DNA of 64,000 nucleotides from an uncultured Rickettsiella sp. GTDB lineage: Bacteria; Pseudomonadota; Gammaproteobacteria; Diplorickettsiales; Diplorickettsiaceae. The stretch spans positions 1-64,000 of the forward strand of contig CAMSHF010000001.1 in NCBI GenBank assembly GCA_947058615.1. The letters run 5' to 3'. Every line of letters begins with the position of its first letter. The first letter of the stretch is position 1. The position numbers were made by a program, and so were the translations under genes. Below, in pieces: positions 9,619 to 43,470 of this stretch. The notes under the pieces are model-generated. The model was not told the origin of the DNA and did no database searches. It worked only from the letters and a program-made list of their open reading frames with translations.

Positions 9619-9621
9619 ACA

Positions 9622-9964: not shown

Positions 9965-10291
9965 TTACGAAAAAAGACTACGTATTGCTAAGGCAATAGC
10001 GGGTGCGCCAAACAAAAAAGAAATACCTAACAAAGTATAAAAAAAGTATTTCCATTCCACATAATGACCGGCACACAACAATCCCACCCCCATAATAGCG
10101 AGCGTTGCAATAGATAAACCCGTAGCACCCAACAAAGCATCAATGAAATAGTGAAGACCTTGATTAACTGGGGTATCTCCACCACCCGCCCAGCACAATT
10201 GAGAAGAAAGAAAAAGAAAAGTAATAAAATCAGTGAATTGAAATATTTTTTTATGGCTTCCATATTGCATATTTTTATTCGAATAAAACAT
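9965..10291 (-). CDS. virB2: VirB2 major pilin, 108 aa
   Basis: An N-terminal signal (cleaved after SSQLCWA) precedes a mature pilin of about 70 residues starting GGGDTPVNQ, with two hydrophobic segments (LSIATLAIMGVGLLCAG and FFYTLLGISFLFGAPAIALAI), the VirB2/TrbC layout. An internal ATG (10270) is an alternative start. It lies 46 bases before virB3 and 65 bases after virD4 on the minus strand. The pilin forms the conjugative pilus in related systems. Confidence 0.85.
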   Translation of the reverse strand: MFYSNKNMQYGSHKKIFQFTDFITFLFLSSQLCWAGGGDTPVNQGLHYFIDALLGATGLSIATLAIMGVGLLCAGHYVEWKYFFYTLLGISFLFGAPAIALAIRSLFS

Positions 10292-10356
10292 AATTATTAT
10301 GCTTTTATTTTAACTTATTTTCTTCAAAAAATCACTATAAAAATAGCTGTTTTTTA

Positions 10357-14599: not shown

Positions 14600-16999
14600 T
14601 TATTTAGAAGAAATATAAGCATTTGCCGCCTCTTTTGCAGCGATCATTTCCTGTATCATATCATCATAAAATACTTTGGCATTTTCAACAGAACCCGCTC
14701 GCAAATATATTATAAGTTTCTGGCAGGCCTGTTCTAAGCGAAATGCTCCACAGTAACTCGCTCCACCCTTCCATTTATGAGCTATATCCATGATGGCTTG
14801 CCAATCGTTTTTTTTGGAAAGTTGTTGGAGCGTATCTAAATCTTTTACCAACCCACTTATCATTAAAGTAAATGCTTCTTTAACAAACTCTTTACTGCCC
14901 GTTAACTGGATAGCTTTATCCACATCTAATACCGCTATCTCTGTTTCTATATTCACGGGCTCTGATATAGCAGAATATTGCAGTAAGCTTTGCTGGTAAC
15001 TAGGAACAAATGCATCCAGTATTTCTACTGCTTTTTCTGGAGTCAATGGTTTAGTAAATACGGCCTCCATTCCTGCTGCAAGACAACGGCGTTTATTGTC
15101 AGTTTCAACATGAGCGGTAAGCCCGATAATAGGAACAGACGGGTTGCGCCGCCATTGCTTCAGACGAATACGTCGGGTTACTTCACACCCGTCATTTCCA
15201 GGCAAACCAATATCCATAAAGATAAGATCATAATTTTGTTGATTAATGTATTGCAAAGCCGCTTCTCCATCTATTGCAATATCGACTTGACAATGGAGTC
15301 TTGACAAAATATTTTGTGCCACCTTAGCAGGGATTGCTTGGTCTTCAACAACAAGAATCCGACTCCCCGCAGAAGCTGATAATTTTCCTACAACAAATTC
15401 TTGAATCACCGGTTTAGTAAGTTGTGCTGTAGGTAAAGTTTCTAAAGAAGGTAACTCATTTTTTTCAACACCTAAACTATCCATAAGCAATGGTTCTTGA
15501 AAGGGAATTAAGCAAGTAAAGCGCGAACCTTGTTTAGGTTGACTTTCCAAATAGATCTCGGCTTGCAAATCGTCAAGAAATTGTTTGATAATGGATAAAC
15601 CTAACCCAACTCCTGAATAAATACCTTCGTAGGAAGGAACAAAACGTCTAAACCGTGTGTAAAGATCATGCTGCTTATCGATAGGAATACCAATACCGGT
15701 GTCACTTACCACCATCTTAACTATTAACTGGTGTGCCTCTTGTTTCATCAATTTTACAGTAAGCTTCACCTCTCCTTGCTGTGTAAACTTTAAGGCATTG
15801 GTCACTAATTCCAAGATAATACGTTGCACTCGTATTGGATCGCTAATCACATAAGTAGGAATTGTTTTATCATAATCCAAGCTTAACAATAAACCTTTTT
15901 GCGACGCCTTAGCTTGATTCAGCTGAATAACTAACTTCAATGCATGATGGAGATCAAATTTCTTTTTTAAGAGTGGAATTTCACCACTAGCCACTTTAAT
16001 GCTTTCTAATACTTTATTTAGAAACTCAAGCAAGGCATCACTGGATTGGACAAGATCTTCAGCAAATTCAGCGACTTTTTTTTCATCGCTAGCCTGTGAC
16101 TGAATAATCTGAGCACAGCCTACGATACCACTTAAAGGCGTCCGAATATCGTGTCGCATATTGGCTAAAAATTCGGTCTTGGCTTGATTAGCTGCTTCTG
16201 ATTTTTCTTTAGCTAAACGCAATTCAAGCTCAAGTTGTTTCTGGTTAGTAATATCAGTAGAAATCCCAACTACTCCATAGGTTTCTCCATACCTATTTCG
16301 TAAAGGAACCTTATTAGCTACCCAGTATAATCGCTGACCATCAGGTCCTATAAATGGAGGCTCTTCGATATTTAATTTTGGTATGTTTGTTTCAATAACT
16401 TGCTTTCCATCACAGATAAGCATATCAATTACTTTTTTATCTACATTCTTAATCCGCCCCATTAATTCTCTAAAGTCCCTGCCAACGGCTTCAGACCGTG
16501 CCACTCCTAATGTTTTAGCTGAATTCTCATTACAGCCGAGATATACAAAGTCCTTACTATACCAATAAACATTACCGGGTAGTTGTGCTAGAACATTATC
16601 CAATTCATAAATTTTATCTTCTGCTTTTTTGAGGTCGGTAATATCTACCCCGACACCTATAACTCCAGCTATCTGTCCCTTTGCATTATAAAAAGGTGTT
16701 TTTTTGACTCGAAAAATAATTTCTTTACCATCAGTCTTTACTCTAATTTCTTCTGGTATATGGTCCTGGTGCTTAGTTATAATTTCCTTATCGGATTGAA
16801 TAATTTTTTGAGCAATATCTTTAAGATATAAATCTTTATCTGTTTTACCCAAGATTTCCTCTAGAGTATTGACTTGCACTACCTTTAGATGTTGCTTATT
16901 ACACGCTAGATAGCGTCCCTCCATATCTTTTAAGTAAACGTTACCAGGAAACAATTCCAATACTTGGTTCAGAAAATTAAGTTCTTGTGTTTTTTCCAT
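14600..16999 (-). CDS. Hybrid sensor histidine kinase: PAS-PAS-HisKA-HATPase-REC-Hpt, 799 aa
   Basis: Two PAS domains come first (about residues 8-125 and 133-255), each starting with a PGNVY motif. The HisKA H-box is RHDIRTPLSG (His about 284). The ATPase domain has the N-box LVTNALKF, SDTGIGIP and GVGLGLSII. The receiver domain has its phospho-Asp in IFMDIGLPG (about 595) and Lys in FTKPL. The Hpt domain carries AHKWKGGA (His about 740). No transmembrane segment is seen, so it is a soluble ArcB/TorS-like phosphorelay protein. No output regulator is in the same operon; the stand-alone receiver at 1029 is one candidate. AAAGGTG precedes the start. The gene is divergent from the NRPS across a 339-base spacer. 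Confidence 0.93.
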   Translation of the reverse strand: MEKTQELNFLNQVLELFPGNVYLKDMEGRYLACNKQHLKVVQVNTLEEILGKTDKDLYLKDIAQKIIQSDKEIITKHQDHIPEEIRVKTDGKEIIFRVKKTPFYNAKGQIAGVIGVGVDITDLKKAEDKIYELDNVLAQLPGNVYWYSKDFVYLGCNENSAKTLGVARSEAVGRDFRELMGRIKNVDKKVIDMLICDGKQVIETNIPKLNIEEPPFIGPDGQRLYWVANKVPLRNRYGETYGVVGISTDITNQKQLELELRLAKEKSEAANQAKTEFLANMRHDIRTPLSGIVGCAQIIQSQASDEKKVAEFAEDLVQSSDALLEFLNKVLESIKVASGEIPLLKKKFDLHHALKLVIQLNQAKASQKGLLLSLDYDKTIPTYVISDPIRVQRIILELVTNALKFTQQGEVKLTVKLMKQEAHQLIVKMVVSDTGIGIPIDKQHDLYTRFRRFVPSYEGIYSGVGLGLSIIKQFLDDLQAEIYLESQPKQGSRFTCLIPFQEPLLMDSLGVEKNELPSLETLPTAQLTKPVIQEFVVGKLSASAGSRILVVEDQAIPAKVAQNILSRLHCQVDIAIDGEAALQYINQQNYDLIFMDIGLPGNDGCEVTRRIRLKQWRRNPSVPIIGLTAHVETDNKRRCLAAGMEAVFTKPLTPEKAVEILDAFVPSYQQSLLQYSAISEPVNIETEIAVLDVDKAIQLTGSKEFVKEAFTLMISGLVKDLDTLQQLSKKNDWQAIMDIAHKWKGGASYCGAFRLEQACQKLIIYLRAGSVENAKVFYDDMIQEMIAAKEAANAYISSK

Positions 17000-17338: not shown

Positions 17339-20300
17339 ATGTCCAACTTAACTCACAATAAAAATAAAATATACTCCATCTTATTAGACATATGGACAAA
17401 ATCTTTAAAGACAATAGATATAGAATCACAGGATACATTTATTTCACTAGGAGGAAATTCACTTACTGCTATCCAGATTATTCATAAAATCAATGAGTCA
17501 TTAGAAATCAGCTTGCCTTTAGATGCTATCTTTAAACATAATACTGTCGAAAAATTAACTACTTTTATTGCAAAACACGCCATTCAGAAATATAACCTAG
17601 AAACGATAGAAAAAAAAATTTGGCAGGATTGTGGTACTCCGCTTACACAATCTCAACAACAAATATATTTTCTAGAACAATATAATGATAACGCATCCTC
17701 TGCATACCTTGTTTCTTTTGCATTTGAAATAAATGGAAAGTTAGATAGGCTTGTCTTAGAAAAATCTATTAACACTATCCTACAAAGACACGATATTTTT
17801 GGTTCGTTTTTTCGAGAGTACACTGAGGGGATTAAGCAATTTATTCAAAAAGATATCAATATAAGGGTACCGATAGAAGAAAATATAAATATAGAAGATT
17901 TACAAAAACAAATTCTTTCCGAAACAAGAAAAAAAATCAACCTATCCAATCCCCATTTAAAAAGGATTAAATTATTAAAACTATCTGAACAACGTTACTT
18001 TTTAGTCATAACAGTACATCATATTATTACCGATGCCTGGTCAATATCTTTGTTCAAGAAAGAATTAGAAGAATGCTATAACGCTTTCTCAAATAATGAA
18101 TATCCAAAATTAACAGTCTTAAAAATGGGCTATGCGGATTTTATTTCCCAACAAATTTCTTATTTAAAAAGTCATAAAATATTCGATGATTCAAAGTATT
18201 GGCAATCAAACTTAGTTAATTTTACAGAAATCACTTTCCCAACTGATTTTAAAAGACCAAAAACAAAGAAGTTTATAGGTAAGCGACTAACATTTAGTCT
18301 AAATAAAACTATTGTAAAAAAAATAAACCGTTTCAATATTCAAAATAATACAACTTCTTTCATGTTAATGGCAACAGTATTGAGTATTTTATTAAGTCGA
18401 TACAACCAACAAGAAGATGTCGTTATTGGATTCCCTATTTCAGGTCGAAATGCTTCGGAATTTAGTCATACTATGGGACTATTCCTGAATACCTTAGTTT
18501 TAAGAAGTAATTTACAAGAAAAAGATACTTTTGAGTCGTTTTTGTTAAATGTCAAACAAAATTTACTGGATGCCTATGCTCATCAAAATTTTCCATTTTC
18601 CCAATTAGTAAAACAATTAAATGTTTCTCGATCCCAAAATAAAAATCCAATATTTCAGATAATGCTTGTGTGGCAAGATAGCCTAGATAGTAATAATTTA
18701 GTCTTTCCCGAAATGACGATGACTCCACATTTTTTGGATAATAGAACCTCAAAGTTTGATATGACTTTCGAATTTATTCCTTCAACATTAGGAATTGATT
18801 GTATTATTGAATATGATACTCAGCTCTACAAAAAAAGCACAATAAAGAGATTGTCTTTGCATTTTTTGAATTTATTATTAAGTGGCATAGAAAACCCTAA
18901 TAAGAATCTACTTGCTTTAGAATTTATTACACTTCAAGAGAAAAAACGGTTTTTAAAAAGTCCAATATTATCAAAATTAGACATAGTTGAGCCTGATACT
19001 ATTCATGAGTTGTTCGAAAAACAAGCTGAACGGTTTCCCGATAAAATGGCTATATGTTGCGACGAGCTAGCTCTTACTTATAGCGAATTAGATAAAAAAT
19101 CTAATCAATTAGCAAGATATATTAAATATCACTATAAAGAATGTTTTACGTCACCCAATATTTTAATTGGAATTTGCTTAGATAGAAGCTTAGAATTAGT
19201 CATTAGCATGCTCGCCATATTAAAAGTGGGTGCTGCTTATGTCCCATTGGATCCCGAATGGCCTAAAAAGAGATTAGATACTGTTTTAAGCGATGCTAAT
19301 TGCTCAATAGTACTCACAGATAATATAAACAAAGATAAATTCTCCTCCATTAAATTAGATACGCAGAAATTATTAATACTTGATGAAGAACTACATGAAC
19401 TTGCTGAGGTTTCTACATTAAAAATAACAAAGGAGAGTAATAAATGTCAGGATTTAATTTACGTAATTTACACATCCGGCACAACGGGGGTTCCCAAAGG
19501 GGTAAGCCAGACACATTATAATGTAATTCGTTTATTACAGAGAGGACATGAACTATTTGGATTTACTTTTGAGGATGTCTGGACATTATTTCATTCATAT
19601 ACATTTGATTTTTCTGTATGGGAAATATGGGGGGCTTTGGGGTCGGGTGGCTGTCTTGTAATCCCCACCTATCAAGAAACTCGCGATCCTGTCTTATTTT
19701 ATCACCTTGTTTTGCAACATAAGGTAACAATTTTAAATCAAACCCCCTCAGCCTTTCAGCTTTTTATGCAAGCTGAAGAAACCAATACTAGGAAAATAAG
19801 TGCTCTAAAATATATCATATTTGGCGGAGAAGCATTAGATGTTACCTTGCTTTCTCCTTGGTGGAAACGCTACTCAGAAAAGCACCCCATTCTTGTTAAT
19901 ATGTATGGTATTACCGAAACAACGGTTCACACAACCTATAAATTTTTAACAAAAAAAGATCTAAATCGAAGAGAATTTTCTAATATAGGCATGCCATTAG
20001 CTGATATCAAAGCTTATGTAGTCGATTCGCACTGTAAGCTTGTTCCAGTGGGCGTGCCCGGTGAATTATTACTAAGTGGATTTGGTTTGTCGCCAGGCTA
20101 CCTAAATCGTCCTCAGCTTAATGCCGAAAAATTTATAAAAAATAAATTTAATGAAACGCTACTATTAAGTCATAGTTTGGCAGAATCGGCTTTTTCGCGT
20201 TTATATAAAACCGGTGATTTAGTGCGGCGACTTGCGGATGGAAGCTTAGAATACTTAGGCAGAATAGATAAGCAACTGAAAGTTAAAGGATTTAGAATAG

Positions 20301-23300
20301 AAGCTGGAGAAATTGAAGCCGCATTAAATATGCATAAAACAATTCGGCAATGTTTAGTTAGTACCTTGAAGCAAAATAATTTAACCTTTTTAGTTGCCTA
20401 CTATATTGCTGATAAACGAATCACCAAGAAGACTGATAACAAATACTTAAGCATTGAATTAAGAACCTATTTATCAAGCTTATTACCTGCTTATGCAATT
20501 CCCAAGTTTTTTATCAAACTTGATTCTTTCCCTTTAACCCCCAATATGAAGATCGACTATGCAGCACTGCCATTGCCATCGCCTTCCTCTGTAGATAGTG
20601 ATAGCCCCACAACATTAATTACAAAAAAGTCACGCCATACCGAGCCTGAAGCTATTTTAGCTGGTCTATGGAAATCTACACTTCAAGTAGATACTATTCA
20701 TCTAGATGATAATTTTTTCAGTCTTGGCGGCGATTCCATATCGAGTATCCGGATTGTAACTGAGGCAAGAAAAAAAGGTTTTGGTTTTTCAGTTAGCGAT
20801 TTGTTTAAATCCCCCACTATTCGTAAATTATCAAAGCATTATAAAAATCAAACTCAAGCAAAAAAAATCAAATTAAAAACTTTTGATATAACCAATAAAA
20901 AACAAATTATTTCTGAAAAATTTCACATCGCTATTGAAAATATTGAAGATATCTATCCACTCTCTGCCTTGCAAACTGGAATGGTATATCATTCCAGTTA
21001 TTCTACTAAATCAGCCATTTATTTAGATATATTTTGTTACAAAATTATGGGGAGCTATAATAAATCTTGCTTACTGCAAGCAATCCAGTGTCTCATAAAT
21101 CTTCATCCGATACTAAGGACTTCCTATTTACTGAATGAATTTGATGAACCTATACAGGTTGTCCACGCTACAATAAAAATCCCTTTTTGTGAACAGCACT
21201 TAGCTAATATGTCCAGTGTTGAACAAGAATGTAAATTAGAATCATGGATACTAGAGGAGAAAACAAAATCTTTTCGATTTGAAGATGCTCCTTTATTTAG
21301 AATAACTGCACATTTAATCCATGAAAAGCAATTTGTGTTGAGCATTTCTTTTCATCACTCTATATTGGATGGTTGGAGTTTGGCTAGTTTTATCACTGAA
21401 TTACTTGCAAACTATTCACAACAATTAAGTTTAAAATTTAGAACTGAACCGACTGCCAAAACCAAGAGTGTTAAGCATACCGAACAGCTAGGGATGTCAG
21501 CAAACCAACTAGATAACAAAGTCGATTGGAATTTTAAAGAATTTGTCCGTTTAGAAAAGGAAACTCTCGCATCTGAAGTACATAGGATATTCTGGAAAAA
21601 TGAGCTTCGTAATTTTGAAATTACTGAAATAGCCTATATCGAAAATACTATTTTACCAAATAATAATGATTTTTGCTCGCATTGTATTCAGGTTAATCGT
21701 CAAGTTACCGCCAAATTAATAGTGCTAGCAAAATCTCTCAATATCTCTCTTGATGAGATTATTTTAACTGCACATATGAAGTTATTATCCATATATTCTA
21801 GTCAAGAGGATGTGCTATCAGGAGTTGTATTTAATGGTAGACCATCACTTGATAATATTGATACAACTTTAGGATTATTTTTAAATACTTTGCCATTTAG
21901 AATAAATGTCTCTAATTGCACTTGGAAAGAATTAATACATCTAGTTTCTGAAAAAAAGAAACACCTTTATCCATATAGACGTTATCCATTAATGAAAATC
22001 ATGCAGGATATTAATACGGATCCTTTATTTAATATCATTTTTTACTTTACTCACTTTCATATTTATAAAAAAATTAAAGCAAACTCTCATTTTAAAATAA
22101 TTGATCAAAAACATTATGAAAGAACCAATTTTCCTCTTGCCATTAACTGCACATTAGATCCAGTTAATAAAAAATTGGAAATAGTATTCAACTATGAGAC
22201 TCAACACTACAACTCTCAACAAATAATACATTTAGCTGATAGCTATATTCGGTTATTAGAGTCCATAGTAACGGATGTAGATGGCCAACATACTGCTTTT
22301 GCTTTATTAACTTCCGAACAAAAGCGCCATCTATTAATTGACTGGAATCAAACTGAAAAGGTTTTCCCACAAAATAAGCTTGTTCATGAGCTGATTGAAG
22401 ACGTTACTGAAAAATTTCCAAAAAGAATAGCAATAATTTTTGAAACTACTTCAATTTCTTACTATGAGCTCAATAGGAAATCAAACCAATTAGCAAATTA
22501 TCTAAATAAGCAAAAAACTTATTCAAATAAATTAGTCGGCTTATGTATAGATCGTAGTTTAGAAGCTATCATAGCAATGTTAGCCGTATGGAAAGCTGGA
22601 AAAGCTTATATCCCTATTGATCCTTCATACCCTGAAGAAAGAATTAAATTTATTCTAAATGACTCTCAATGTCATATTTTAATTACTCGAAAAAATCTTA
22701 TTCCAGGTTTAGCATTTTCTAATGAAATTGATTTAATTTACTTGGATGACTTGTATTCGATTACCAAATCGATTTCAGCGGAGAATTCAATTAATACCAC
22801 CTCCGATAAAGCTAATTTAGCTTATGTTATTTATACATCTGGTTCCACGGGGATGCCAAAAGGTGTCATGGTAGAACACCTATCACTGGTTAATCTTCTA
22901 TGGGATATGCAGAAAAAAATAGATTTTACTGAAAATGATAATTTTCTTTCATTAACGTCTTTTTCGTTTGATATTTCAATATTAGAAATTTTTCTTCCCT
23001 TGATTACCGGGGGTTGCTGTGTGCTCGCTGATCAATCTGGTAGTAAAGACCCAGAATGGATTAAAGATACTCTAAAAAATTGGCCTATTACGGTAGTCCA
23101 AGCAACTGCCTCTAAGTGGGCTTTACTTTTCGAACATGGTTTAACAGAGTCAAAATGCAAAATCAAAGCACTATGTGGAGGGGAAACCTTACCCACTTAT
23201 ATAGCATCCCAACTTATTGAATTCTCTGAATCAGCTTGGAATGTTTATGGACCAACAGAAACTACGATTTGGTCTACAATCTATAAATTAACTAAAGAAA

Positions 23301-24916
23301 ATATAAAATTAACCAAATTACCTATTGGAACTCCTTTATCTAACACTAAAGTGTATGTACTAGATAAAAATTTACGTCTTATGCCAATAGGAGGTATAGG
23401 TGATCTATATATTTCAGGATTAGGTTTAGCAAGAGGCTATTTAAACCAAGCTAATTTAACCAAAGAAAAATTTATTGAAAATCCATTTATATCAAAGAAT
23501 ATTAATTACTGTAGGTTATATCGAACAGGAGATTTAGCAAGATGGTTACCTGATGGTAACCTAGACTATATAAACAGAAGTGATTATCAAATTAAAATAA
23601 GGGGCTATAGAGTAGAACCTGGCGAAGTAGAACATGCTTTATTAAAACACAATTCAATAAAAAACAGTGTTGTTTTACTTAAGGAAAACAAAGGCATGCA
23701 TTCGCTAATTGCGTTTTTAGTTAAAAAGAAAGAAGAAAATGTAAGTATTAAACAACTCCGTGAGTTTCTTTCAAAGCAACTACCTTATTATTGTATACCT
23801 GACCAATACATGTTCTTAGAAAAATTACCTACAACACATAACGAGAAAATAGATTATCGACAATTAATGAATATTGAAATAGAGCCTCCACAACCCGTTG
23901 ATGACGCTGTTATGACGTCAAAGCAATTAAAATTTGCTAACTTATGGAAGGAAGTACTACAAGTTAAGAGCATTTCCTTGTCAGATAATTTCTTTGAATT
24001 AGGAGGAAACTCACTTTTAACCCTTAGATTAGTCAGTAAAATTAATAAGGAATTTTCTATTGTTTTAGAAATGAAAGAAATTATAGAACATCCGGTATTT
24101 AGCACGTTATATGACAGAATTATTTTACTAAAGGATTTTCAAGAGAAAAATTCAAAAACTGAAGAAACAATAGATTTTGTAAAATCTATTCCCGACCCAA
24201 TCATTAAGCTAAATGAAACAGGTAATAAAACACCACTATTTTTGATTCATCCCGTGGGTGGTAATGTATTTTATTATATTCCACTTGTTAAATCCTTAGC
24301 TAAAGATAGGACTGTATACGCTATCCAGGATCCAGGTATACGATGCCGTCAACCCTTATTTGAAAGCTTGAATGAAATGGCAAGTTTTTATATTAAAGTA
24401 ATAAAAAAATACCAACCTAAAGGGCCTTATCTTCTTGCAGGGTCTTCATTTGGAGCGAATGCCACTATAGAAATAGCGAGACAATTAGTCAATCAAGGTG
24501 AACAGCCGATGTTTGTTGGACTTATTGATGGCTGGGCTAAGTACCCTAAAGAAGCAAATGACAATCGAGAATGGTTTTGTCAAAATCTAATTAATCAACT
24601 TAAAACTCTTGATCAATATTTTTCTCGAGCTGATATCCCAGAATTGCTTTTGGATCTACATTGGCATCGACAACAATTATTAGTGAAACATATTTTACCG
24701 GATATGTCCGACATGCAATTAACTCTATTTAAAGCAAAGCAAACTATGGACGTACTTAAGCCTCTAGAATCTCCCTATAATAATTGGGATATCTATTGCA
24801 AGAGTACTCCCATAGTATATCCAGTATCCGGTGACCATTTCACAATGCACTTTCCACCGAATCATGAATCACTTGCACAGGCCTTTAAACAATGTCTTGA
24901 AAAAATTAATGTTTAG
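17339..24916 (+). CDS. Nonribosomal peptide synthetase, T-C-A(Thr)-T-C-A(Gly)-T-TE, 2525 aa
   Basis: Domains in order: T0 with LGGNS (Ser about 41); C1 with HHIITDAW (227-234, the usual DG is DA); A1 with TSGTTGVPKG (about 712), NMYGITETT and KGFRIEAGE; T1 with LGGDS (about 1133); C2 with intact HHSILDG (about 1338); A2 with TSGSTGMPKG (about 1832), NVYGPTETT and RGYRVEPGE; T2 with LGGNS (about 2224); TE with GSSFG (Ser about 2370) and GDHF (His about 2498). Aligning the A domains by hand to GrsA gives codes D-F-W-N-I-G-M-V-H (Thr) and D-I-L-Q-L-G-V-I-W (close to the Gly code). T0 has no A domain, so its starter must be loaded in trans. It converges on the PKS operon. No strong ribosome site is visible. 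Confidence 0.95.
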   Translation: MSNLTHNKNKIYSILLDIWTKSLKTIDIESQDTFISLGGNSLTAIQIIHKINESLEISLPLDAIFKHNTVEKLTTFIAKHAIQKYNLETIEKKIWQDCGTPLTQSQQQIYFLEQYNDNASSAYLVSFAFEINGKLDRLVLEKSINTILQRHDIFGSFFREYTEGIKQFIQKDINIRVPIEENINIEDLQKQILSETRKKINLSNPHLKRIKLLKLSEQRYFLVITVHHIITDAWSISLFKKELEECYNAFSNNEYPKLTVLKMGYADFISQQISYLKSHKIFDDSKYWQSNLVNFTEITFPTDFKRPKTKKFIGKRLTFSLNKTIVKKINRFNIQNNTTSFMLMATVLSILLSRYNQQEDVVIGFPISGRNASEFSHTMGLFLNTLVLRSNLQEKDTFESFLLNVKQNLLDAYAHQNFPFSQLVKQLNVSRSQNKNPIFQIMLVWQDSLDSNNLVFPEMTMTPHFLDNRTSKFDMTFEFIPSTLGIDCIIEYDTQLYKKSTIKRLSLHFLNLLLSGIENPNKNLLALEFITLQEKKRFLKSPILSKLDIVEPDTIHELFEKQAERFPDKMAICCDELALTYSELDKKSNQLARYIKYHYKECFTSPNILIGICLDRSLELVISMLAILKVGAAYVPLDPEWPKKRLDTVLSDANCSIVLTDNINKDKFSSIKLDTQKLLILDEELHELAEVSTLKITKESNKCQDLIYVIYTSGTTGVPKGVSQTHYNVIRLLQRGHELFGFTFEDVWTLFHSYTFDFSVWEIWGALGSGGCLVIPTYQETRDPVLFYHLVLQHKVTILNQTPSAFQLFMQAEETNTRKISALKYIIFGGEALDVTLLSPWWKRYSEKHPILVNMYGITETTVHTTYKFLTKKDLNRREFSNIGMPLADIKAYVVDSHCKLVPVGVPGELLLSGFGLSPGYLNRPQLNAEKFIKNKFNETLLLSHSLAESAFSRLYKTGDLVRRLADGSLEYLGRIDKQLKVKGFRIEAGEIEAALNMHKTIRQCLVSTLKQNNLTFLVAYYIADKRITKKTDNKYLSIELRTYLSSLLPAYAIPKFFIKLDSFPLTPNMKIDYAALPLPSPSSVDSDSPTTLITKKSRHTEPEAILAGLWKSTLQVDTIHLDDNFFSLGGDSISSIRIVTEARKKGFGFSVSDLFKSPTIRKLSKHYKNQTQAKKIKLKTFDITNKKQIISEKFHIAIENIEDIYPLSALQTGMVYHSSYSTKSAIYLDIFCYKIMGSYNKSCLLQAIQCLINLHPILRTSYLLNEFDEPIQVVHATIKIPFCEQHLANMSSVEQECKLESWILEEKTKSFRFEDAPLFRITAHLIHEKQFVLSISFHHSILDGWSLASFITELLANYSQQLSLKFRTEPTAKTKSVKHTEQLGMSANQLDNKVDWNFKEFVRLEKETLASEVHRIFWKNELRNFEITEIAYIENTILPNNNDFCSHCIQVNRQVTAKLIVLAKSLNISLDEIILTAHMKLLSIYSSQEDVLSGVVFNGRPSLDNIDTTLGLFLNTLPFRINVSNCTWKELIHLVSEKKKHLYPYRRYPLMKIMQDINTDPLFNIIFYFTHFHIYKKIKANSHFKIIDQKHYERTNFPLAINCTLDPVNKKLEIVFNYETQHYNSQQIIHLADSYIRLLESIVTDVDGQHTAFALLTSEQKRHLLIDWNQTEKVFPQNKLVHELIEDVTEKFPKRIAIIFETTSISYYELNRKSNQLANYLNKQKTYSNKLVGLCIDRSLEAIIAMLAVWKAGKAYIPIDPSYPEERIKFILNDSQCHILITRKNLIPGLAFSNEIDLIYLDDLYSITKSISAENSINTTSDKANLAYVIYTSGSTGMPKGVMVEHLSLVNLLWDMQKKIDFTENDNFLSLTSFSFDISILEIFLPLITGGCCVLADQSGSKDPEWIKDTLKNWPITVVQATASKWALLFEHGLTESKCKIKALCGGETLPTYIASQLIEFSESAWNVYGPTETTIWSTIYKLTKENIKLTKLPIGTPLSNTKVYVLDKNLRLMPIGGIGDLYISGLGLARGYLNQANLTKEKFIENPFISKNINYCRLYRTGDLARWLPDGNLDYINRSDYQIKIRGYRVEPGEVEHALLKHNSIKNSVVLLKENKGMHSLIAFLVKKKEENVSIKQLREFLSKQLPYYCIPDQYMFLEKLPTTHNEKIDYRQLMNIEIEPPQPVDDAVMTSKQLKFANLWKEVLQVKSISLSDNFFELGGNSLLTLRLVSKINKEFSIVLEMKEIIEHPVFSTLYDRIILLKDFQEKNSKTEETIDFVKSIPDPIIKLNETGNKTPLFLIHPVGGNVFYYIPLVKSLAKDRTVYAIQDPGIRCRQPLFESLNEMASFYIKVIKKYQPKGPYLLAGSSFGANATIEIARQLVNQGEQPMFVGLIDGWAKYPKEANDNREWFCQNLINQLKTLDQYFSRADIPELLLDLHWHRQQLLVKHILPDMSDMQLTLFKAKQTMDVLKPLESPYNNWDIYCKSTPIVYPVSGDHFTMHFPPNHESLAQAFKQCLEKINV

Positions 24917-25152: not shown

Positions 25153-26694
25153 CTACTCGCGAATACAGATCTTTTCATTATCCCTCATTCTGAAATCGGG
25201 TAAAAAATCCGTAAATAAAATATTTAAATCATCTTCAGAAGTTAACACTTTCATAATGTAGGTATCCGGTCGAATTAAATACCCGCACACACCTAAATGA
25301 CCATAAATTAATCCTTTATTTTTAGTTTTACTAACTAGAATTACCTTTATTAAAGTATTTTTATAATAAGAATCCATGTCTAGGTATTTATTATAAAATA
25401 AAATTAAATTGAACTGAGTAGGAGATATAGCATCATATACAGATCTACCATCTTCCATTATAAAATTAGGCATCCTATTTCCAACAATATCTGTTAAATT
25501 TTTAAAATTATAATTAATTTTATGCTGTGAAATATTTTGAATTTCTTTTCGATTAAATCGCCTAAAGTTCAAAAACCTCTTTTGAGCAATATTAAGAAAT
25601 CTTTTTGTAGCATTATTGCCAAAAATGACCTCGCTCATTTTATTATTATAATGAAATAACCTATGGGCAATCGGTAGTCTTTCATCAGTATACGTTTCCA
25701 TTATAGATGGGCGTAATCGATTTAGTACAGTTAAAGCTACTTTCCACCCAACATTAAAAGCATCCTGTATTCCTGTATTAAGCCCTTGTGAGCCAATTGG
25801 GCTTTGAATATGAGCTGCATCGCCCGCATAAACTACTCTATTTTCATAAAAACTATTGACCACAAATTGTTTTGGATTAAAGGTTGATATCCATTTTGGA
25901 TCACAAATAACCGCGTCATAAAAATTTATACTTTTCATAAGATCTGAAAATAATTCCAGTACATAACTATCGCAAAATTTTTGATCAGATTTTTCTGTAG
26001 TAATAATTCTATAAATAAAATTATCCTTGTCTCTTTCTATAGGCATAATATAAAGAAAAGAACGTTTTTTTAAAAAAAATAAATGCCTTTCATCAAAAGG
26101 TAGAGCTAATTTTTTAATAGTTACATCAGCCATTAGAAAAGTTTCATTATGTTCTTCGCCATTGAAATCCATATTATCAAATTTTCTGACAGAGCTATGT
26201 CCTCCATCACATGCTAAAAGATAACGTGTTTTAATTTTATAATAGATACCTTTTTTTTTATCAAAAATAGAACAAATAATACAATCTTCATTCCGATTAA
26301 AATTAATAAGTTCCATTTCTCTTTCTATTATGGCACCTGTATTTAAAAGCTTATCATTGAGAATTTGCGTGGTTTTTGATTGTGAAATTTGTAATATAAA
26401 ATTATACTTACTCTCAAGATGAGAAAAATCAGCTGTACCAATTTTTCGATTTCTATAATAATAATTTAGATAATACGTTGGAATACCAGCTCTTACCATG
26501 ATTTCGGCAACTTCTAGCGTATTTAAAACTTCAAGTGTGCGAGAAGTAATTGTCATCGCTTTACTCTTACTAGACCATGAAGATTGTTTATCTATTATTC
26601 TAAAAGAAACTCCAAATTTTTTTAATATAAGGGCTAATGTTAATCCTACTGGACCTGCACCTACAATCAATATTTCACAATCAAGCATAAACAA
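25153..26694 (-). CDS. FAD-dependent aromatic monooxygenase (PHBH/MhpA/RdmE-like), 513 aa
   Basis: Class A flavoprotein hydroxylase. The FAD-binding Rossmann motif is ILIVGAGPVGLTLALIL (about residues 8-24), the middle GD motif is YLLACDGGHSSVRK, and the second FAD motif is GDAAHIQSPIGSQGLNTGIQ (about 290-309). The C-terminal thioredoxin-like domain is present, judged from length. Enzymes of this family hydroxylate phenolic rings or aromatic polyketides using NAD(P)H and O2. It is the last gene of the PKS operon and overlaps the preceding monooxygenase gene by 14 bases. The N-terminus is slightly different from the sister gene, so these are not recent duplicates. The substrate is not known. 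Confidence 0.88.
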   Translation of the reverse strand: MFMLDCEILIVGAGPVGLTLALILKKFGVSFRIIDKQSSWSSKSKAMTITSRTLEVLNTLEVAEIMVRAGIPTYYLNYYYRNRKIGTADFSHLESKYNFILQISQSKTTQILNDKLLNTGAIIEREMELINFNRNEDCIICSIFDKKKGIYYKIKTRYLLACDGGHSSVRKFDNMDFNGEEHNETFLMADVTIKKLALPFDERHLFFLKKRSFLYIMPIERDKDNFIYRIITTEKSDQKFCDSYVLELFSDLMKSINFYDAVICDPKWISTFNPKQFVVNSFYENRVVYAGDAAHIQSPIGSQGLNTGIQDAFNVGWKVALTVLNRLRPSIMETYTDERLPIAHRLFHYNNKMSEVIFGNNATKRFLNIAQKRFLNFRRFNRKEIQNISQHKINYNFKNLTDIVGNRMPNFIMEDGRSVYDAISPTQFNLILFYNKYLDMDSYYKNTLIKVILVSKTKNKGLIYGHLGVCGYLIRPDTYIMKVLTSEDDLNILFTDFLPDFRMRDNEKICIRE

Positions 26695-28177
26695 TATTAC
26701 TCATGACAGAAAATATTAAATTTGGTTTTGTAATGGAGAATATATATAAATCTGGACGAATAATTAAACAAAAGCCATTTTCTAGTAGTGAAATAATGTT
26801 ATATTCGTAAATATCTTGTATTTTCAAATTTTTAATATTACTAATTTTATCTATATCAATAAAAATATAATTCAACTTCCTATCAAAATCAGAAAAACAT
26901 ATCTTTGTCTGATTATATTTTTTATCAATAAGAATACTCCATTGATTTGTTAAAATCTCATCAAGTCTTTTAACTTGGTTATTTTGAGTTAAAATATAAA
27001 TAGAAGGTAGCAAATATCCGCCAGAATACGAATTTTTTTCAAAATAAAAAGAACATCTGGGTGTAAGTTTAATTTTTCGGTAATATTGACTGCTAAGAAT
27101 TGAGTTTTTATTATTAGTTTTTTTTACATTTTTGGCTAATAAACGAATAAATTCCATAATTTCGCGTATAGCGAATGTTCGCTCTTTGTGATATGTCTTG
27201 AGAAGATTAGGCGACACTCCACAATGAACAACCTCTGCTAATTTCCAACATAAATTCTGCGCGTCTCGAATTCCAGAACACATGCCTTGCCCTCCATAAG
27301 GAGGAACTAAATGCGCCGCATCACCAAGCAAATAAATATTATCTTGTGAAAACTTTCTCGCTAAGCAAAAATTTCTTTTATAAATTCTTGCGCGAATAAT
27401 TTTAGGGTCAATTCCTTCTAGAAAATCTTCTAAAAGCATACAGGCAAGTAAGTTATAATCGGTAAGTACCATCCCAGAATTTATTTTAACTTCAAAACGC
27501 CTCATTTCATAAGGAAAATTAATAGTTACACAGGAAAGTTTGCAAGTTTTTTTTTCGGCAATTTTATTAATATTAATTTGTAACTGTTCACTATCTTGCA
27601 TATCGATAACCATCCAATCTTCACTGGGATCTAATTCATCGAATTGAATTCCACACAAAGACCTAATAGTGCTTCGCCCACCATCACATGCTAGTATATA
27701 ATTAGCCTTAATCTGAATTTGACGATTTTGATAAATCGCCGTTGCCATATAGTAATCAGTTTCTTTTTTTATATTAATTAATTCACACGGCCGAGATATA
27801 TGTACAGACTGTGAATGCTCAAGTTTATCAATTAAAAGCTTTTCTAGATCTGGCTGATAAAATGTTGACAAAATAGGAAATTCGAAAGGGCAAAAATCAC
27901 TATCAGGAATAAAAAAACTATATTCGCCGTTAGGTGAAAAATATTGAACGTGTGGCTTTTTGCATATATTTTTAATGTCTTCATCTTGAAGGCATAAATT
28001 TCTTAAAAGACGTAAAGATTCATCGTCTATGCCAATTGCTCTAGGATAAGTATATGCTTCAGACTTTTTGTCAATCAATAACGACTTAATCTGAAATTTA
28101 TCTAAATAATTGGCAGCAGCTAATCCAACTGGTCCTGCACCAACAATTAATACCGTAAATTGATTTTCAATTGACAT
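26681..28177 (-). CDS. FAD-dependent aromatic monooxygenase (MhpA-like), 498 aa
   Basis: Second class A hydroxylase of the cluster. It has VLIVGAGPVGLAAANYL at the N-terminus, ILACDGGRSTIRSLCG in the middle and GDAAHLVPPYGGQGMCSGIR (about residues 284-303), closely matching 3-(3-hydroxyphenyl)propionate hydroxylase-like enzymes. It overlaps the reductase gene upstream by 11 bases and the other monooxygenase gene downstream by 14 bases, so the three are translationally coupled. Location in a PKS operon suggests tailoring of an aromatic product (inference); degradation of phenolics is the alternative, but no ring-cleavage genes are nearby. Confidence 0.88.
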   Translation of the reverse strand: MSIENQFTVLIVGAGPVGLAAANYLDKFQIKSLLIDKKSEAYTYPRAIGIDDESLRLLRNLCLQDEDIKNICKKPHVQYFSPNGEYSFFIPDSDFCPFEFPILSTFYQPDLEKLLIDKLEHSQSVHISRPCELINIKKETDYYMATAIYQNRQIQIKANYILACDGGRSTIRSLCGIQFDELDPSEDWMVIDMQDSEQLQININKIAEKKTCKLSCVTINFPYEMRRFEVKINSGMVLTDYNLLACMLLEDFLEGIDPKIIRARIYKRNFCLARKFSQDNIYLLGDAAHLVPPYGGQGMCSGIRDAQNLCWKLAEVVHCGVSPNLLKTYHKERTFAIREIMEFIRLLAKNVKKTNNKNSILSSQYYRKIKLTPRCSFYFEKNSYSGGYLLPSIYILTQNNQVKRLDEILTNQWSILIDKKYNQTKICFSDFDRKLNYIFIDIDKISNIKNLKIQDIYEYNIISLLENGFCLIIRPDLYIFSITKPNLIFSVMSNIVYA

Positions 28178-29396
28178 AATTTTTTAAAGTAGAGTCATTA
28201 TTGTTAACATTCATATAAAATACAATTTTACCCCTAGTGTGCCCCGAATCTATAGATTTATGTGCTTCAGCTGCTTGAGCTAGAGAAAATACTTGAAAAA
28301 CGCAAGATTTTACTTTATCAGTCCTTATGTGCTCAGCTAGCAGCTTTAGTCCAGTAATATTTGGCTCAAAAAATGAATAATTAAAATATCTTCCATGTTC
28401 TTTAATTTGATAAAATTTACGCTCTAAGGTATTAGAAACAAATTGACGCATACCAACATGCAGCCCTTTTGAATCAGTAAACGGCATCATTGGTCCAACA
28501 ATAGAAATATACCTAGAGGAATACGAGAAAATCTTTAATAATTCAAGATCAAAATACTTCAGTATGTTTTTATATTTTGAAACGTCCCAGGTTTCATCAG
28601 CCCCAGCCAGCATCTCTAAACAAGAAGTTAATACCGCCTCAATTTGCAATTCTATTGCCTTGTATAATGAGACACTTTTTAATAATGGTAAAATAGAATC
28701 TGTATGGGACTTACCTAGTAAATCATAAGCAATATCACAATTTCTTACTCTTTTGCTATAATCTTCTTTTTCGTAATTAATTACTTCATCTGCACCTAGT
28801 CTATTAAGATAATCGACGTTAGCTTCACTACAAGTAGTGACAACATAAGCGTTCAGTGCTTTTAAGAATTGAATGGCATAGCTTCCAACTCCACCTGCTC
28901 CAGCAGAAACAAAAACCTGCTTACCCGCATAGTCCTCACATCGCATACCACTCTGAGTAATCAAAGCATGATAGGTAGTAAGGGCAACATACGGAAATGA
29001 GGCGGCTTGAACATGAGTAACATTAGTCGGTTTATTTGTAATTTCAGAAGTTGGTATACAAACAAATTCGGCATGGCTCCCCTGCTTCATTCCTAATGCT
29101 CTAAAGGGACTTACCACACCAAAAACACTATCACCTTTTTTATACTCCTGTACGTCTTCGCCGACTTTAACAATTACTCCTGAGAAATCTCGTCCTAATA
29201 TAATCGGCAATGGAGCTTTTAACGAAAAAATCGTTTTCCCATAGCCAGCTCTAATTCGTGCATCAATCGGATTAAGTGATGCAGCATATACTTCAACAAG
29301 TACTTCATCTTTGTTTGGTTCTGGAACGGCGTATTGAACAAGATCTAATGCCTTAACTGGATCAGTATCATATTTTTTAAGCATAACTACTTGCAT
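28167..29396 (-). CDS. MDR-family NADPH oxidoreductase, RTN4IP1-like, 409 aa
   Basis: Zinc-independent medium-chain reductase. The N-terminal GroES-like part has PDKDEVLVEV-like PNKDEVLVEVYAASLNPID and PIILGRDFSGVIVKVG. The Rossmann motif is VSAGAGGVGSYAIQFLKAL (about residues 151-169). An insertion of about 60 residues after DLLGKSHTDSILPL and the GPMMPFTDSKGLHVG stretch recall the RTN4IP1 subgroup of quinone reductases. It ends with HTRGKIVF, typical of the superfamily. I prefer the ATG at 29396, since AGGA lies 8 bases upstream; the frame opens at 29402. In PKS clusters such enzymes act as trans enoyl reductases or reduce quinones. The cluster has no embedded ER. Confidence 0.82.
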   Translation of the reverse strand: MQVVMLKKYDTDPVKALDLVQYAVPEPNKDEVLVEVYAASLNPIDARIRAGYGKTIFSLKAPLPIILGRDFSGVIVKVGEDVQEYKKGDSVFGVVSPFRALGMKQGSHAEFVCIPTSEITNKPTNVTHVQAASFPYVALTTYHALITQSGMRCEDYAGKQVFVSAGAGGVGSYAIQFLKALNAYVVTTCSEANVDYLNRLGADEVINYEKEDYSKRVRNCDIAYDLLGKSHTDSILPLLKSVSLYKAIELQIEAVLTSCLEMLAGADETWDVSKYKNILKYFDLELLKIFSYSSRYISIVGPMMPFTDSKGLHVGMRQFVSNTLERKFYQIKEHGRYFNYSFFEPNITGLKLLAEHIRTDKVKSCVFQVFSLAQAAEAHKSIDSGHTRGKIVFYMNVNNNDSTLKNYVN

Positions 29397-29416
29397 TACC
29401 ATTATCCTTTTAAATA

Positions 29417-32400
29417 TTAAATTAAATTATATGCTATTATTTCTTTCAAAATATTCTGAATAAAAAAAGATATATCCTTAGATATATGAGGGGTCAAATT
29501 ATCATTCTTTACAAAAAAATGATCCCCTTCGTATTTTTTTAACATTATTTGTTTTGACGTAAAGTTTGACCATTCCTCCATTTCTTTTTCAGTTACCCGA
29601 TCATCTAAAACACCATGTAGTGCAAGAATGGGTTTTGAAATATAGTTTGTTTGAAAGCGACACGAAGAAACAATGCAAAGATCTGCAATTAACATTTTCA
29701 AAAAATATTTAGCGTCATCAATTTTAAAATTAAAATTTTCAAGTTTTAAGATTTTTAATAGTTTAGAAATTTGCTTTTTATCTAACTCTTCAAACTCGTT
29801 AAAAATATTAGGAATGTTTAATCCAAATTCTTCTTGTATTTTATTATCGATTTTTTTTAACCACGGATTATCTTGTAAAAGAGGTGATGAACAAGCGGCA
29901 ACAACAATTCCACATGCCTGACTAATATTTTTAAAATTTAACATTAAAGAAAAAGCAACTAAGGCTCCAAAACTATGTCCATACAGTATAAATGGTAGAT
30001 TAGTATGTTCCTTAATCAAAGGTGTTAAATACTCATTAAAAAAATTAAGATTTAGACATAATGCTTCATTTTTTCGTTCTTCGCGGCCCGGAAGTTGAAT
30101 AGGAGAAAGATGTATCCAACTAGGCAAATATTTTCCTAATATATTAAAAATAGTAGCGCCCGCTCCTCCGTATGGAATCGCATATAAAACACATTTAGCT
30201 TGTGAATTAATCGAAGTATTTTTTATCCATTTATCTATACTATTTGATATAGGATCAGTATGAATTAAAATTTTTAAATTGGAAACAACATCTATAAGAT
30301 TTTCACGCTTATCAAAACAATTCAAAATATCTTTGATACTCATGCTTGTTGTTAAATCAACAATATTTAATTCACTCTTCAAACAACAATCTAATTTTTC
30401 TTTTAAAACCAAAGCTGAAATTGAATCTAAACCATAATTTGTTAAGGGTAATTTCGTATCTATTATTTCCTTGTCGATAATACCTAATAGTAAGCAAAAT
30501 GTATCTACTACAAACTGCTCAAACTCTTGTTCATTATTAAAAGTATTACTTATTGGATGCGTAAAATCAGAAACAGTTTGACTTATATCCATTTTTACTT
30601 GTTTCATTCGACACCCTGAAATTTCTGCAATTAAGAAATTTTCAGAATCAAAGAGTTGTAGATCACCAGTAAGTTCGTCATCAGATTCATTAATTATATT
30701 AATTAAACATTTAATATTGTTCTGATATTTTTCTTGAGTAAATAAAGTAAGTTTCTTAATAGAAGCCACCATATACTTGTTTTTGGAAGAGGAACAATAA
30801 CTATGCATGTGAAAAGCTTGCGCGCAACAATCTAATACTTCAGGAGAAAAAGGGATTTTAGTTTCAATGTTTTTTTCATTTTGAATATGTACTAAAAACT
30901 GCCTTTCGGACAAAACATCTATTTTATTGATTCTTTGAATATTTTTACCTAAAGGTAAATTAAGTTCTCGATTTAAGTAGGAATAAAAAGTTTCGCCTGA
31001 CATGGCGCTAGAAGCACTCTCATTATCATAATGAAAATCTATATTAACGCTATCAGCAAACTCAATATTACCTCTTACATGCTCTACCCATTTAGAGCTT
31101 AAGGATGATGGCTTTGATAAAAATATCCAACTGGAAGTTTTATCAGATGAACAAAACTTAATAATTATTTTTCTATTTTCAGATTTTTTAATAATTATTG
31201 GAGCAGTAAATGATAGGTTAGAAATAGTAACATTATGCGAATAATCTAGTACTGAAATCAATAAATCAATATAAATACCTATATGGACAATATTGTGCGT
31301 ATCTTTTATTTTATCATTATTTTGCAATAAATCTGTAATATCAAAAAATTTTATATCTCCTGGAACATCAATAATTTTTGGCTGATTATTTAACGTAGTG
31401 TTTTCTTTGAATTTTGGCCAATAAACCATTTTTTCAAACGGATAGGTAGGTAAAGATATCTTTAAATAAGAATTTTCTCGATAAAATGCTTCCCAATTAA
31501 TGCATTCGCCAGAATTAAGTAATGTAAAAAAAATAGAAATAAGCCAATCGCATGTTGGAGCATAATCTGTTTCTAGTTTCAAAAAAACATCTTTATCAAG
31601 GCTTTTAAGTTTTCCATTATTTATGCTATAAAAAACATTGGATGCTATTTTATTATTTGAGTTGATAATTGTATTTAATTGTTCATCACTAATATCATCA
31701 AAATTATTTATTGTAAGTAATAATTCATTGTTTATCAAATCATTGTTTTGACATAATAGCAAAGGAAAAATACAAGCTAAACCACTGTAACACCATTTAG
31801 TATCATCAAAGAAATTTTGAAGCAAATTAACTAAAGATAATCCAACAAGCAAATAATCACAGATACGAACATGCTGTATAGGAAATTTTCTACCTAATAG
31901 TATTGTATATGCTTTTTCATATTCACTAGGATAAAATTTCTTAATATCCTTAAGATAAGGTATCGTTTTATAAATTAGTTCGCTGCTAATACCAATAGAA
32001 TATTTTGCAGTGTTGGCTAACATGGAATCAGGATAATTAATAATGTAATTAAGTTTATCTAACAATTCTTTTTTTGTATTAACTAAAATATTAATTTTAT
32101 ATTTTTCAAAACTTCTGGAAATATTAGTTGTATAGCAAATTTGATCGATACTAAAATTATTATCTTCTTTTATCATTTCTATAAATTTTTTTATGTAAGC
32201 AATCAGTGAGTTTTTATTTTTTGCAGATAAACAAAAAATTTTTTTTAACTTAGATTCTGCGCTAGGTTTATTGATATATTTTGATATTATCGCACTAGCA
32301 TTTGTTCCACTAAAACCAAATGAATTCAAAGCAATAGCTTTGTTTGTCATATCAATTGGGATGATTTTTTTCGTAATGGTAATATTTGATGTCAATTTTA

Positions 32401-33616: not shown

Positions 33617-33622
33617 AAATAA

Positions 33623-42705: not shown

Positions 42706-43470
42706 TTATACAAATCCGAGTTCATTAGCTTCATAATAAACTAAATTTTTTTGAAAAGAAGTGGCAACTGCGCTGGCAATATAATAATTATCTATGTCTA
42801 GTGGAAAAAGCTTCCAGGGCATGATCTCTGATTGACGAAGTGTCGAAATTTTCAACCAATCGTGTGAACTAACAGCTTTATTTAGATCAACGGAAATACT
42901 AGTAAGATCCTGCGTTAGTCCAATCCCTACGGCTTTTAAGTAAGCTTCTTTTCTGGTCCAGCAACGAAAAAAAGCTTCTTTTTTTTCTTCTTGGCTATTC
43001 AATGCTGAAAAAAATATCTTTTCGGAGGGCGAAAAAATAATTTCGCCTAGGCCCTCTATCGAGCATTTCTTATCATAATATTCTATATCGATACCTATCA
43101 AATCTTCCATTGTTATCGCTATAAGAATAAGGTTATGCGAATGAGATATATTAAACTGAACTTTTAATGAGTTTCGTAAATTATCTAGCGCAGGTTTCCC
43201 ATGATTTCCGACTTCAAATCGTAAGCATTGTGGATTGCCATCTAAATAATTGGCTAGAATCAACCGCTTCATGCTATGGGTTACTTGATAACGATGTTGG
43301 TCACGCTCAAAAATAAATCGTTTAGAGCGCTTTCTCTCTTCTGGTGAAAGTAGTGAGATAAGATATTTGAGCTGATGGTTAACATTATCCAGGCTGATTC
43401 GCCAAATATGTAATTCTGATCGCGAAATCGATAACTTGGCGGGTGGTTTACCCCATAAAATTTGATTCAT
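42706..43470 (-). CDS. Sfp-type 4'-phosphopantetheinyl transferase, 254 aa
   Basis: Sfp-type transferases convert apo carrier proteins of NRPSs and PKSs to the active holo form using CoA. The Mg-binding motif is GIDIEYYD (about residues 122-129), and the second signature is RCWTRKEAYLKAVGIGL (about 169-185), with NHGKPAL and FNISHSHN upstream. All signature residues are present. The six T/ACP domains encoded in 17339-39583 need such an enzyme, and it lies only 3 kb from the PKS operon. Two-domain length is typical of the Sfp group rather than AcpS. Confidence 0.93.
   Translation of the reverse strand: MNQILWGKPPAKLSISRSELHIWRISLDNVNHQLKYLISLLSPEERKRSKRFIFERDQHRYQVTHSMKRLILANYLDGNPQCLRFEVGNHGKPALDNLRNSLKVQFNISHSHNLILIAITMEDLIGIDIEYYDKKCSIEGLGEIIFSPSEKIFFSALNSQEEKKEAFFRCWTRKEAYLKAVGIGLTQDLTSISVDLNKAVSSHDWLKISTLRQSEIMPWKLFPLDIDNYYIASAVATSFQKNLVYYEANELGFV

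What the first reader, a model, noticed from the sequence alone, without database searches (positions are those of the whole stretch)
17339..24916. NRPS begins with an orphan carrier domain and encodes Thr then Gly
T0 precedes C1 but has no adenylation domain in the window, so its acyl group must come from elsewhere: the PKS line or a separate ligase. The two A domains read as Thr and Gly, the same pair (in other order) as in aryl-Gly-Thr siderophores of the bacillibactin type. An aromatic acid from the PKS loaded on T0 would give an aryl-Thr-Gly product, perhaps a metal chelator.
Basis: partly seen in the sequence, partly recalled or inferred. Interest (0 to 1): 0.75.

Follow-up and report, generated by a model that had tools for sequence, protein, structure and literature searches.

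The report
NRPS for an acyl-dehydrobutyrine-glycine peptide
A small-genome bacterium, related to insect and arthropod symbionts, carries one intact enzyme line that probably links an unknown acyl group to threonine and glycine and, judging by its second joining domain, strips water from the threonine, which makes an iron-chelator of the bacillibactin type unlikely.

Summary
In detail: the 2525-aa gene at 17339-24916 reads T0-C1-A1-T1-C2-A2-T2-TE, with no adenylation domain for T0. A1 has the Thr code (DFWNIGMVH); A2 (DILQLGVIW) is one residue from a printed Gly code.

The interpretation changes. C2 is of the dehydrating "modified amino acid" (CmodAA) type: its nearest solved relatives are McyA and AmbE, it lies in a 50-member clade (support 0.999) whose members mostly follow Ser/Thr modules, and the carrier before it has the expected LGGDSI motif. 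The best product is acyl-dehydrobutyrine-Gly, not aryl-Thr-Gly. A conserved CmodAA residue pair (K1325/E1393) is charge-swapped here (D1472/K1540) and in the only full ortholog found, so dehydration is likely but not shown.

The siderophore idea is not supported: no dihydroxybenzoate ligase, LCL-like C1, reversed order, and a separate FslA/FslB-like pair in the window. What loads T0 is open. No dedicated ligase is shared by the two genomes that hold the NRPS. The neighbouring PKS occurs in just those two of 16 family genomes, but it has its own thioesterase and is frameshifted in the second.

The parts
17339..24916 (+). NRPS gene, 2525 aa, T0-C1-A1-T1-C2-A2-T2-TE
   Evidence: ORF; Pfam; full-length ortholog at 67%
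17363..17584 (+). T0, orphan carrier domain (LGGNSL, aa 37-42)
   Evidence: Pfam PP-binding x3; motif; 62% identical in the ortholog
17624..18958 (+). C1, LCL-like condensation domain; active site reads HHIITDA instead of HHxxxDG (also in the ortholog)
   Evidence: Best solved relative TycC PCP-C 2jgp 232 bits; EntF 29.6, VibH 57.6, CDA starter 42 bits; motif
18998..20569 (+). A1, code DFWNIGMVH = Thr
   Evidence: code in PMC4169593
20636..20848 (+). T1, carrier of the LGGDSI type expected before dehydrating C domains
   Evidence: motif; rule from PMC10880069 passages
20954..22333 (+). C2, CmodAA-type condensation domain, HHSILDG
   Evidence: McyA 8jbr 286 bits; clade support 0.999; McyA and AmbE-CmodAA are the two best structural matches, Z 43.5 and 41.6, next 38.0
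21752..21754 (+). D1472, where CmodAA domains have K/R (Crz1 K1325)
21956..21958 (+). K1540, where CmodAA domains have E (Crz1 E1393); charge-swapped partner of D1472
22364..23872 (+). A2, code DILQLGVIW = Gly
   Evidence: printed Gly codes in PMC4169593 and PMC12283262
23921..24133 (+). T2 (LGGNSL)
24206..24898 (+). TE, GSSFG; most conserved domain (77.5%)
   Evidence: Pfam
14600..16999 (-). PAS hybrid histidine kinase, divergent neighbour; kept beside the NRPS in the ortholog genome
   Evidence: Pfam; 58% ortholog in G011 at the same place
25153..39583 (-). Neighbouring PKS cluster: two FAD monooxygenases, MDR enzyme, PKS B (KS-DH/PT-like-ACP-TE), PKS A (AT-KS-ACP-KS-ACP); no KR found. Possible source of the T0 acyl group
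   Evidence: Pfam; co-occurrence
42706..43470 (-). Sfp/HetI-type phosphopantetheinyl transferase, likely activator of T0-T2 and the ACPs

Best explanation
The gene encodes a dimodular NRPS with a loading carrier. T0 receives an acyl or aminoacyl group in trans (inferred; donor unknown). A1 loads Thr on T1 and C1 joins the T0 group to it (inferred from domain order and the A1 code). C2, a CmodAA-type domain, removes water from T1-bound N-acyl-Thr to give dehydrobutyrine (Dhb) and joins it to Gly on T2 (inferred from family membership). The TE releases an acyl-Dhb-Gly product, linear or cyclic (inferred). Dhb is an electrophilic, rigid residue, so the product is more likely a bioactive small molecule than an iron chelator. 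The leading source of the T0 group is the neighbouring PKS, through its free product or an acyl transfer step, but this is the weakest link.
For: Codes: A1 DFWNIGMVH, A2 DILQLGVIW. C2 sequence: best solved relative McyA (286 bits), then McyB 155 and AmbE-CmodAA 154.6. C2 fold: McyA Z 43.5 and AmbE-CmodAA Z 41.6, next 38.0 (model pLDDT 87). Context test: of 256 C domains in ORFs from 79 genome loci plus the window, G011 and two G-genome loci, 104 had a complete upstream A code. Ser/Thr codes stand before 28 of 33 domains that score at least 130 bits against C2 (26 of 31 without the window and its ortholog) but before 5 of 71 that score lower (Fisher p about 2e-14 for the 26 of 31, not corrected for relatedness). 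Tree of 215 domains: C2 in a clade of 50, support 0.999, with 28 Ser/Thr and 6 other complete codes. L075, Planktothrix rubescens PCC 7821, one of the closest relatives of C2 (291 bits), is called a Dhb genotype in PMC3827215 (passages). T1 is LGGDSI, T0 and T2 LGGNSL, as PMC10880069 describes for carriers of dehydrating C domains. H1479, R1547 and R1548 match H1332, R1400 and R1401 of PMC11342130. PKS and full NRPS occur in the same 2 of 16 family genomes.
Against: K/R1325, present in all domains of the 50-member set of PMC11342130, is D here, and E1393 is K; mutating the matching AmbE R1605 reduced activity (same paper). [quoted passage not shown] Against the PKS as donor: it sits on the other strand, ends in its own TE that resembles type II thioesterases, lies about 12.6 kb from the NRPS in G011, and is frameshifted there in PKS A while the NRPS is intact. 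C1 is LCL-like, which normally takes aminoacyl or peptidyl donors (recalled).
Confidence: 0.6

Rival explanations
1. C2 only condenses: the charge swap at D1472/K1540 has removed dehydration, and the product is acyl-Thr-Gly.
For: Two residues that mark CmodAA domains differ, with this D-K combination only in this pair of orthologs among 31 close relatives; the matching AmbE R1605 matters for activity (PMC11342130, passages).
Against: The two changes compensate in charge (K/R goes with E in 23 of 23, D with K in 2 of 2, Q with a residue other than E in 4 of 6). The H1332, R1400 and R1401 equivalents, HHSILDG and T1 LGGDSI are all kept.
Confidence: 0.25
2. T0 is loaded by another carrier-loading enzyme of the cell: the FkbH-like domain of the second NRPS (glyceryl), or a trans-acting adenylation domain, and the PKS is a separate pathway.
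For: FkbH-type NRPS present in the own genome and in G011. A Chromatiaceae MAG with the same T0-C-A(Thr)-T-CmodAA start (L095) has an ORF with FkbH-like sequence directly upstream (assignment by eye). C1 is LCL-like. The own genome has free-standing A domains with codes DVGEIGSID, DVWHFSLID and DVICMGGCL.
Against: None of the three free-standing A domains has a counterpart in G011, whose 6 AMP-binding genes are A1, A2, the FkbH-NRPS and three of acyl-CoA/acyl-ACP synthetase length (the kind judged by length). The FkbH domain has its own carrier in cis. A second T0 system, L104, shows P450-like and SDR-like ORFs upstream and no FkbH (by eye).
Confidence: 0.3
3. Aryl-Thr-Gly siderophore of the bacillibactin type.
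For: A1 and A2 use the same two residues as DhbF.
Against: Reverse order; no DHB ligase recognisable among 8 AMP-binding genes; no chorismate-binding enzyme in G011 and one of unresolved kind in the own genome; C1 unlike EntF or VibH; dehydrating-type C2; a separate FslA/FslB-like pair at 44849-47931.
Confidence: 0.05
4. T0 is a relic and the line starts by C1 taking a CoA-bound acyl group, or T0 is loaded with Thr or Gly by A1 or A2.
For: No loader is encoded beside it; C1 has an unusual HHIITDA active site.
Against: T0 is as conserved as T2 between genera (62 and 63%) and keeps its LGGNSL motif in both.
Confidence: 0.12

Closest known systems
McyA of [Dhb7]-microcystin (Planktothrix rubescens PCC 7821 and relatives)
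   Same: Thr module followed by the closest named relatives of C2 (291 bits for L075); LGGDSI carrier; Dhb genotype in print (PMC3827215)
   Different: These ORFs start with A-T, without an orphan T0, and the next A code is not Gly; K-E pair in place of D-K
Corallorazine synthetase Crz1/Crz2
   Same: Acyl, hydroxy amino acid, CmodAA domain, Gly: the same order of chemistry (PMC11342130, passages)
   Different: Ser instead of Thr, starter C1 without T0, N-methylation, split module, reductive release (TD) instead of TE
Albopeptide AlbB and legonmycin LgnD/LgnB/LgnA
   Same: Biochemically shown Thr-to-Dhb dehydration by C domains of this type (PMC10880069, PMC8748450, passages)
   Different: Other residues and architecture; legonmycin loads Thr through a separate A-T0 and a TEII
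DhbF of bacillibactin
   Same: Thr and Gly codes, C-terminal TE (PMC4169593)
   Different: Gly then Thr, dedicated DHB ligase; no CmodAA domain and an iron-chelating trilactone (last two recalled)

Membership tests
CmodAA / dehydrating condensation domains (C2) | Groups with characterised CmodAA domains by sequence | tested here: met
   McyA and AmbE among the three best solved relatives; clade of 50, support 0.999
CmodAA / dehydrating condensation domains (C2) | Follows a module for Ser, Thr or another beta-hydroxy residue | tested here: met
   A1 DFWNIGMVH; 28 of 33 relatives follow Ser/Thr codes, 5 of 71 other C domains do
CmodAA / dehydrating condensation domains (C2) | Donor carrier of the GGDSI type | tested here: met
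   T1 LGGDSI; rule in PMC10880069
CmodAA / dehydrating condensation domains (C2) | HHxxxDG, H1332, R1400 and/or R1401 | tested here: met
   HHSILDG, H1479, R1547, R1548; H and R1400 in 31 of 31 relatives of at least 200 bits, the window included
CmodAA / dehydrating condensation domains (C2) | K/R1325 and E1393 (conserved, not strictly defining: in my set K/R in 23 of 31, E in 25 of 31) | tested here: not met
   D1472 and K1540, a reversed charge pair. Because of this I call C2 CmodAA-type, not a proven dehydrating domain
CmodAA / dehydrating condensation domains (C2) | Catalyses dehydration | not testable with these tools
   needs an enzyme assay
Bacillibactin-type siderophore synthetase | Dedicated aryl-acid ligase (DhbE/EntE) | tested here: not met
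   8 AMP-binding genes in the genome, none of that kind by length and context; the family model TIGR02275 was not run genome-wide
Bacillibactin-type siderophore synthetase | Gly then Thr, Thr on the carrier next to TE | tested here: not met
   order is Thr then Gly
PKS-fed hybrid NRPS | PKS chain passes directly to the NRPS | tested here: inconclusive
   co-occurrence in 2 of 2 genomes but opposite strands and a terminal TE on PKS B

The most novel reading that the evidence does not exclude
A dehydrating condensation domain with its conserved donor-side K-E ion pair inverted to D-K, in a symbiont line, that still makes Dhb: a natural charge swap that would show which side of the pair does the chemistry, in an otherwise unreported acyl-Dhb-Gly pathway of a reduced-genome intracellular bacterium.
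Probability: 0.4. Interest if true: 0.6.

Novelty: new variant of a known kind. Interest (0 to 1): 0.5.

Why it matters
If right, a bacterium with a 1.37 Mb genome, from a family of arthropod-associated intracellular bacteria (family inferred), keeps a 7.6-kb gene for a dehydroamino-acid peptide under purifying selection. That points to a real role towards host or competitors. The paired charge swap gives a ready natural variant for testing how dehydrating C domains work. It also corrects a tempting siderophore annotation and moves the iron role to the FslA/FslB-like genes of the same window.

Tried and rejected
Siderophore reading: rejected for the reasons in the rivals. FkbH as the general loader of such T0 domains: L095 has an FkbH-like ORF upstream but L104, with the same T0-C-A(Thr)-T-CmodAA start, does not. 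Free-standing A domains of the own genome as loaders: no counterpart in G011. MbtH partner: none in G000 or G011. Promoters: 44 sigma-70-like sites against 43.7 expected, no information. Plasmid relatives: 2630 records, all under 60% identity, generic NRPS hits; the best one added nothing. Class-wide scan with C2: 19 of 369 genomes with a match at E 1e-20, the window's genome included, none of the others near. Papers: the searches listed no paper on an NRPS of Rickettsiella relatives; PMC6016236 (passages) reports no PKS in R. viridis. Patteson et al. on AmbE was not read; it is used through PMC11342130 and PMC10880069.

Rows dropped before counts: 135 domains without an upstream A in the same ORF and 17 with incomplete codes, 41 domains shorter than 380 aa. 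Alignment A2 for the fold used 28 sequences: the window, L027 and 26 of the 36 locus references listed. Some of the 79 loci come from the same contig, and cyanobacterial mcy relatives are over-represented, so the Fisher value is too optimistic.

Full report
What is there. The finding's coordinates are exact: one ORF of 2525 aa, 17339-24916 on the + strand. Pfam gives two condensation, two adenylation, three carrier and one thioesterase domain, in the order T0-C1-A1-T1-C2-A2-T2-TE. The gene upstream is a PAS hybrid histidine kinase on the other strand (14600-16999), so T0 has no adenylation domain of its own. A full-length ortholog, 67% identical, exists in one other genome of the family (G011, other genus), with the same start, the same kinase beside it and all motifs kept. 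G002, of the window's own genus, keeps only a remnant of the TE end. Every domain, T0 included, looks to be under purifying selection.

Substrates. Codes read by alignment are DFWNIGMVH for A1 and DILQLGVIW for A2, identical in G011. DFWNIGMVHK is the Thr code of DhbF and DILQVGLIWK its Gly code (PMC4169593, passages); DILQLGMIWK is also given for Gly (PMC12283262, passage).

The missed point: C2. Against solved structures, C2 scores 286 bits with McyA, then 155 with McyB and 154.6 with AmbE-CmodAA, the structure titled as a dehydrating condensation domain. An AlphaFold model of C2 (mean pLDDT 87) has McyA (Z 43.5, rmsd 2.3, 427 aligned) and AmbE-CmodAA (Z 41.6, rmsd 2.3, 405 aligned) as its two best matches, next 38.0. 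A scan of named genomes gave 79 loci. In these, plus the window, G011 and two G-genome loci, I found 256 C domains; 104 had a complete upstream A code. Ser/Thr codes precede 17 of 19 domains at 200 bits or more against C2, 11 of 14 at 130-200, and 5 of 71 below. Exceptions above 130 bits are DATKVGEVG twice (one locus, L088), DAFFLGGTF, DSWNSALVY and DVYYLGGVC. In a tree of 215 domains, C2 falls in a clade of 50 with support 0.999. One of its closest relatives is L075, Planktothrix rubescens PCC 7821, Thr code, which PMC3827215 calls a Dhb genotype (passages). T1, the donor carrier, reads LGGDSI while T0 and T2 read LGGNSL, which is the pattern that PMC10880069 describes for dehydrating C domains (passages).

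Residues. PMC11342130 (passages) lists conserved CmodAA residues. Here H1332 is H1479, R1400/R1401 are R1547/R1548, but K/R1325 is D1472, T1347 is S1494 and E1393 is K1540. Among 31 domains of at least 200 bits, K or R goes with E in 23 of 23, D with K in 2 (window and G011), Q with E in 2 and Q with I, M or Y in 4. The paper places these two positions close together in a model of Crz1. The simplest reading is an ion pair turned round in this lineage. That argues for a kept fold and probably a kept function, but the lysine side may be catalytic, so loss of dehydration is the main rival.

C1 and T0. C1's best solved relative is the TycC PCP-C domain (232 bits); EntF has 29.6, VibH 57.6 and the CDA starter 42 bits. 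C1 is therefore LCL-like and does not look like an aryl or lipid starter domain. Its active site reads HHIITDA in both orthologs. Two MAG systems share the T0-C-A(Thr)-T-CmodAA start: L095 with an FkbH-like ORF upstream and L104 without.

Who loads T0. The own genome has 8 AMP-binding genes and G011 has 6. Common to both are A1/A2, the FkbH-NRPS A domain and genes of acyl-CoA or acyl-ACP synthetase length. No dedicated ligase is shared. G011 holds orthologs of all PKS cluster genes, about 12.6 kb from the NRPS, with one frameshift in PKS A and PPTase copies split over two frames. NRPS and PKS occur together in 2 of 16 family genomes and separately in none, apart from the G002 remnant. PKS B ends in a TE that resembles type II thioesterases such as TesA and RifR. 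The link is thus plausible, not shown.

Siderophore. The window holds an FslA-like synthetase (46051-47931, 375 bits) and an FslB-like exporter (44849-46048, 184 bits), both below NCBIfam's cut-offs, a better candidate for iron uptake. No MbtH. One chorismate-binding enzyme in the own genome, of unresolved kind, and none in G011.

Organism. The genome is 1.37 Mb in 14 contigs and is not named. G015 of the same family has a single contig of 1,579,735 bases, the size that PMC6016236 gives for Ca. Rickettsiella viridis, so I infer a Rickettsiella relative. Literature searches listed no report of this pathway.

Verdict. A real, intact and conserved NRPS whose most likely product core is acyl-Dhb-Gly. 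A new variant of a known kind.

Noticed in passing
window 44849-47931 (-): FslA-like NIS siderophore synthetase and FslB-like MFS exporter, probably a rhizoferrin-type siderophore.
   Followed up: partly
window 1488-12691 (-): Conjugative type IV secretion genes (VirB4/B6/B8/B9/B10/B11-like, TraD-like, MobC-like) beside the island, with higher G+C (37-39%) than the NRPS/PKS region (28-32%).
   Followed up: partly
G000:C2:192288-198494 (L022 7288-13494): A second NRPS of 2068 aa with an N-terminal FkbH-like region, then C-A-T-TE; FkbH matches occur in 14 of 16 family genomes. A PAS-type histidine kinase ORF adjoins it, as one does the window NRPS and the free A domain on C10 (by eye).
   Followed up: partly
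G000:C10:22848-24608 (L023 7849-9609): Free-standing A domain with code DVGEIGSID (ornithine by recall), C-terminal region without a carrier match; homologs in G002 and G008, same code in G008.
   Followed up: partly
G000:C7:78000-95000 (L024): A further cluster with two free A domains (codes DVWHFSLID and DVICMGGCL), Fe(II) oxygenase, acyl-CoA dehydrogenase, MFS-like and PPTase-like ORFs and a ketosynthase ORF.
   Followed up: no
window 29417-39583 (-): PKS without a ketoreductase: AT-KS-ACP-KS-ACP and KS-DH/PT-like-ACP-TE, with two FAD monooxygenases; an aromatic or pyrone product is a reasonable guess.
   Followed up: partly
L088: Pseudoalteromonas luteoviolacea carries CmodAA-like domains behind modules with code DATKVGEVG and with Q-I or Q-M in place of the K-E pair: perhaps another modification than Ser/Thr dehydration.
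   Followed up: no
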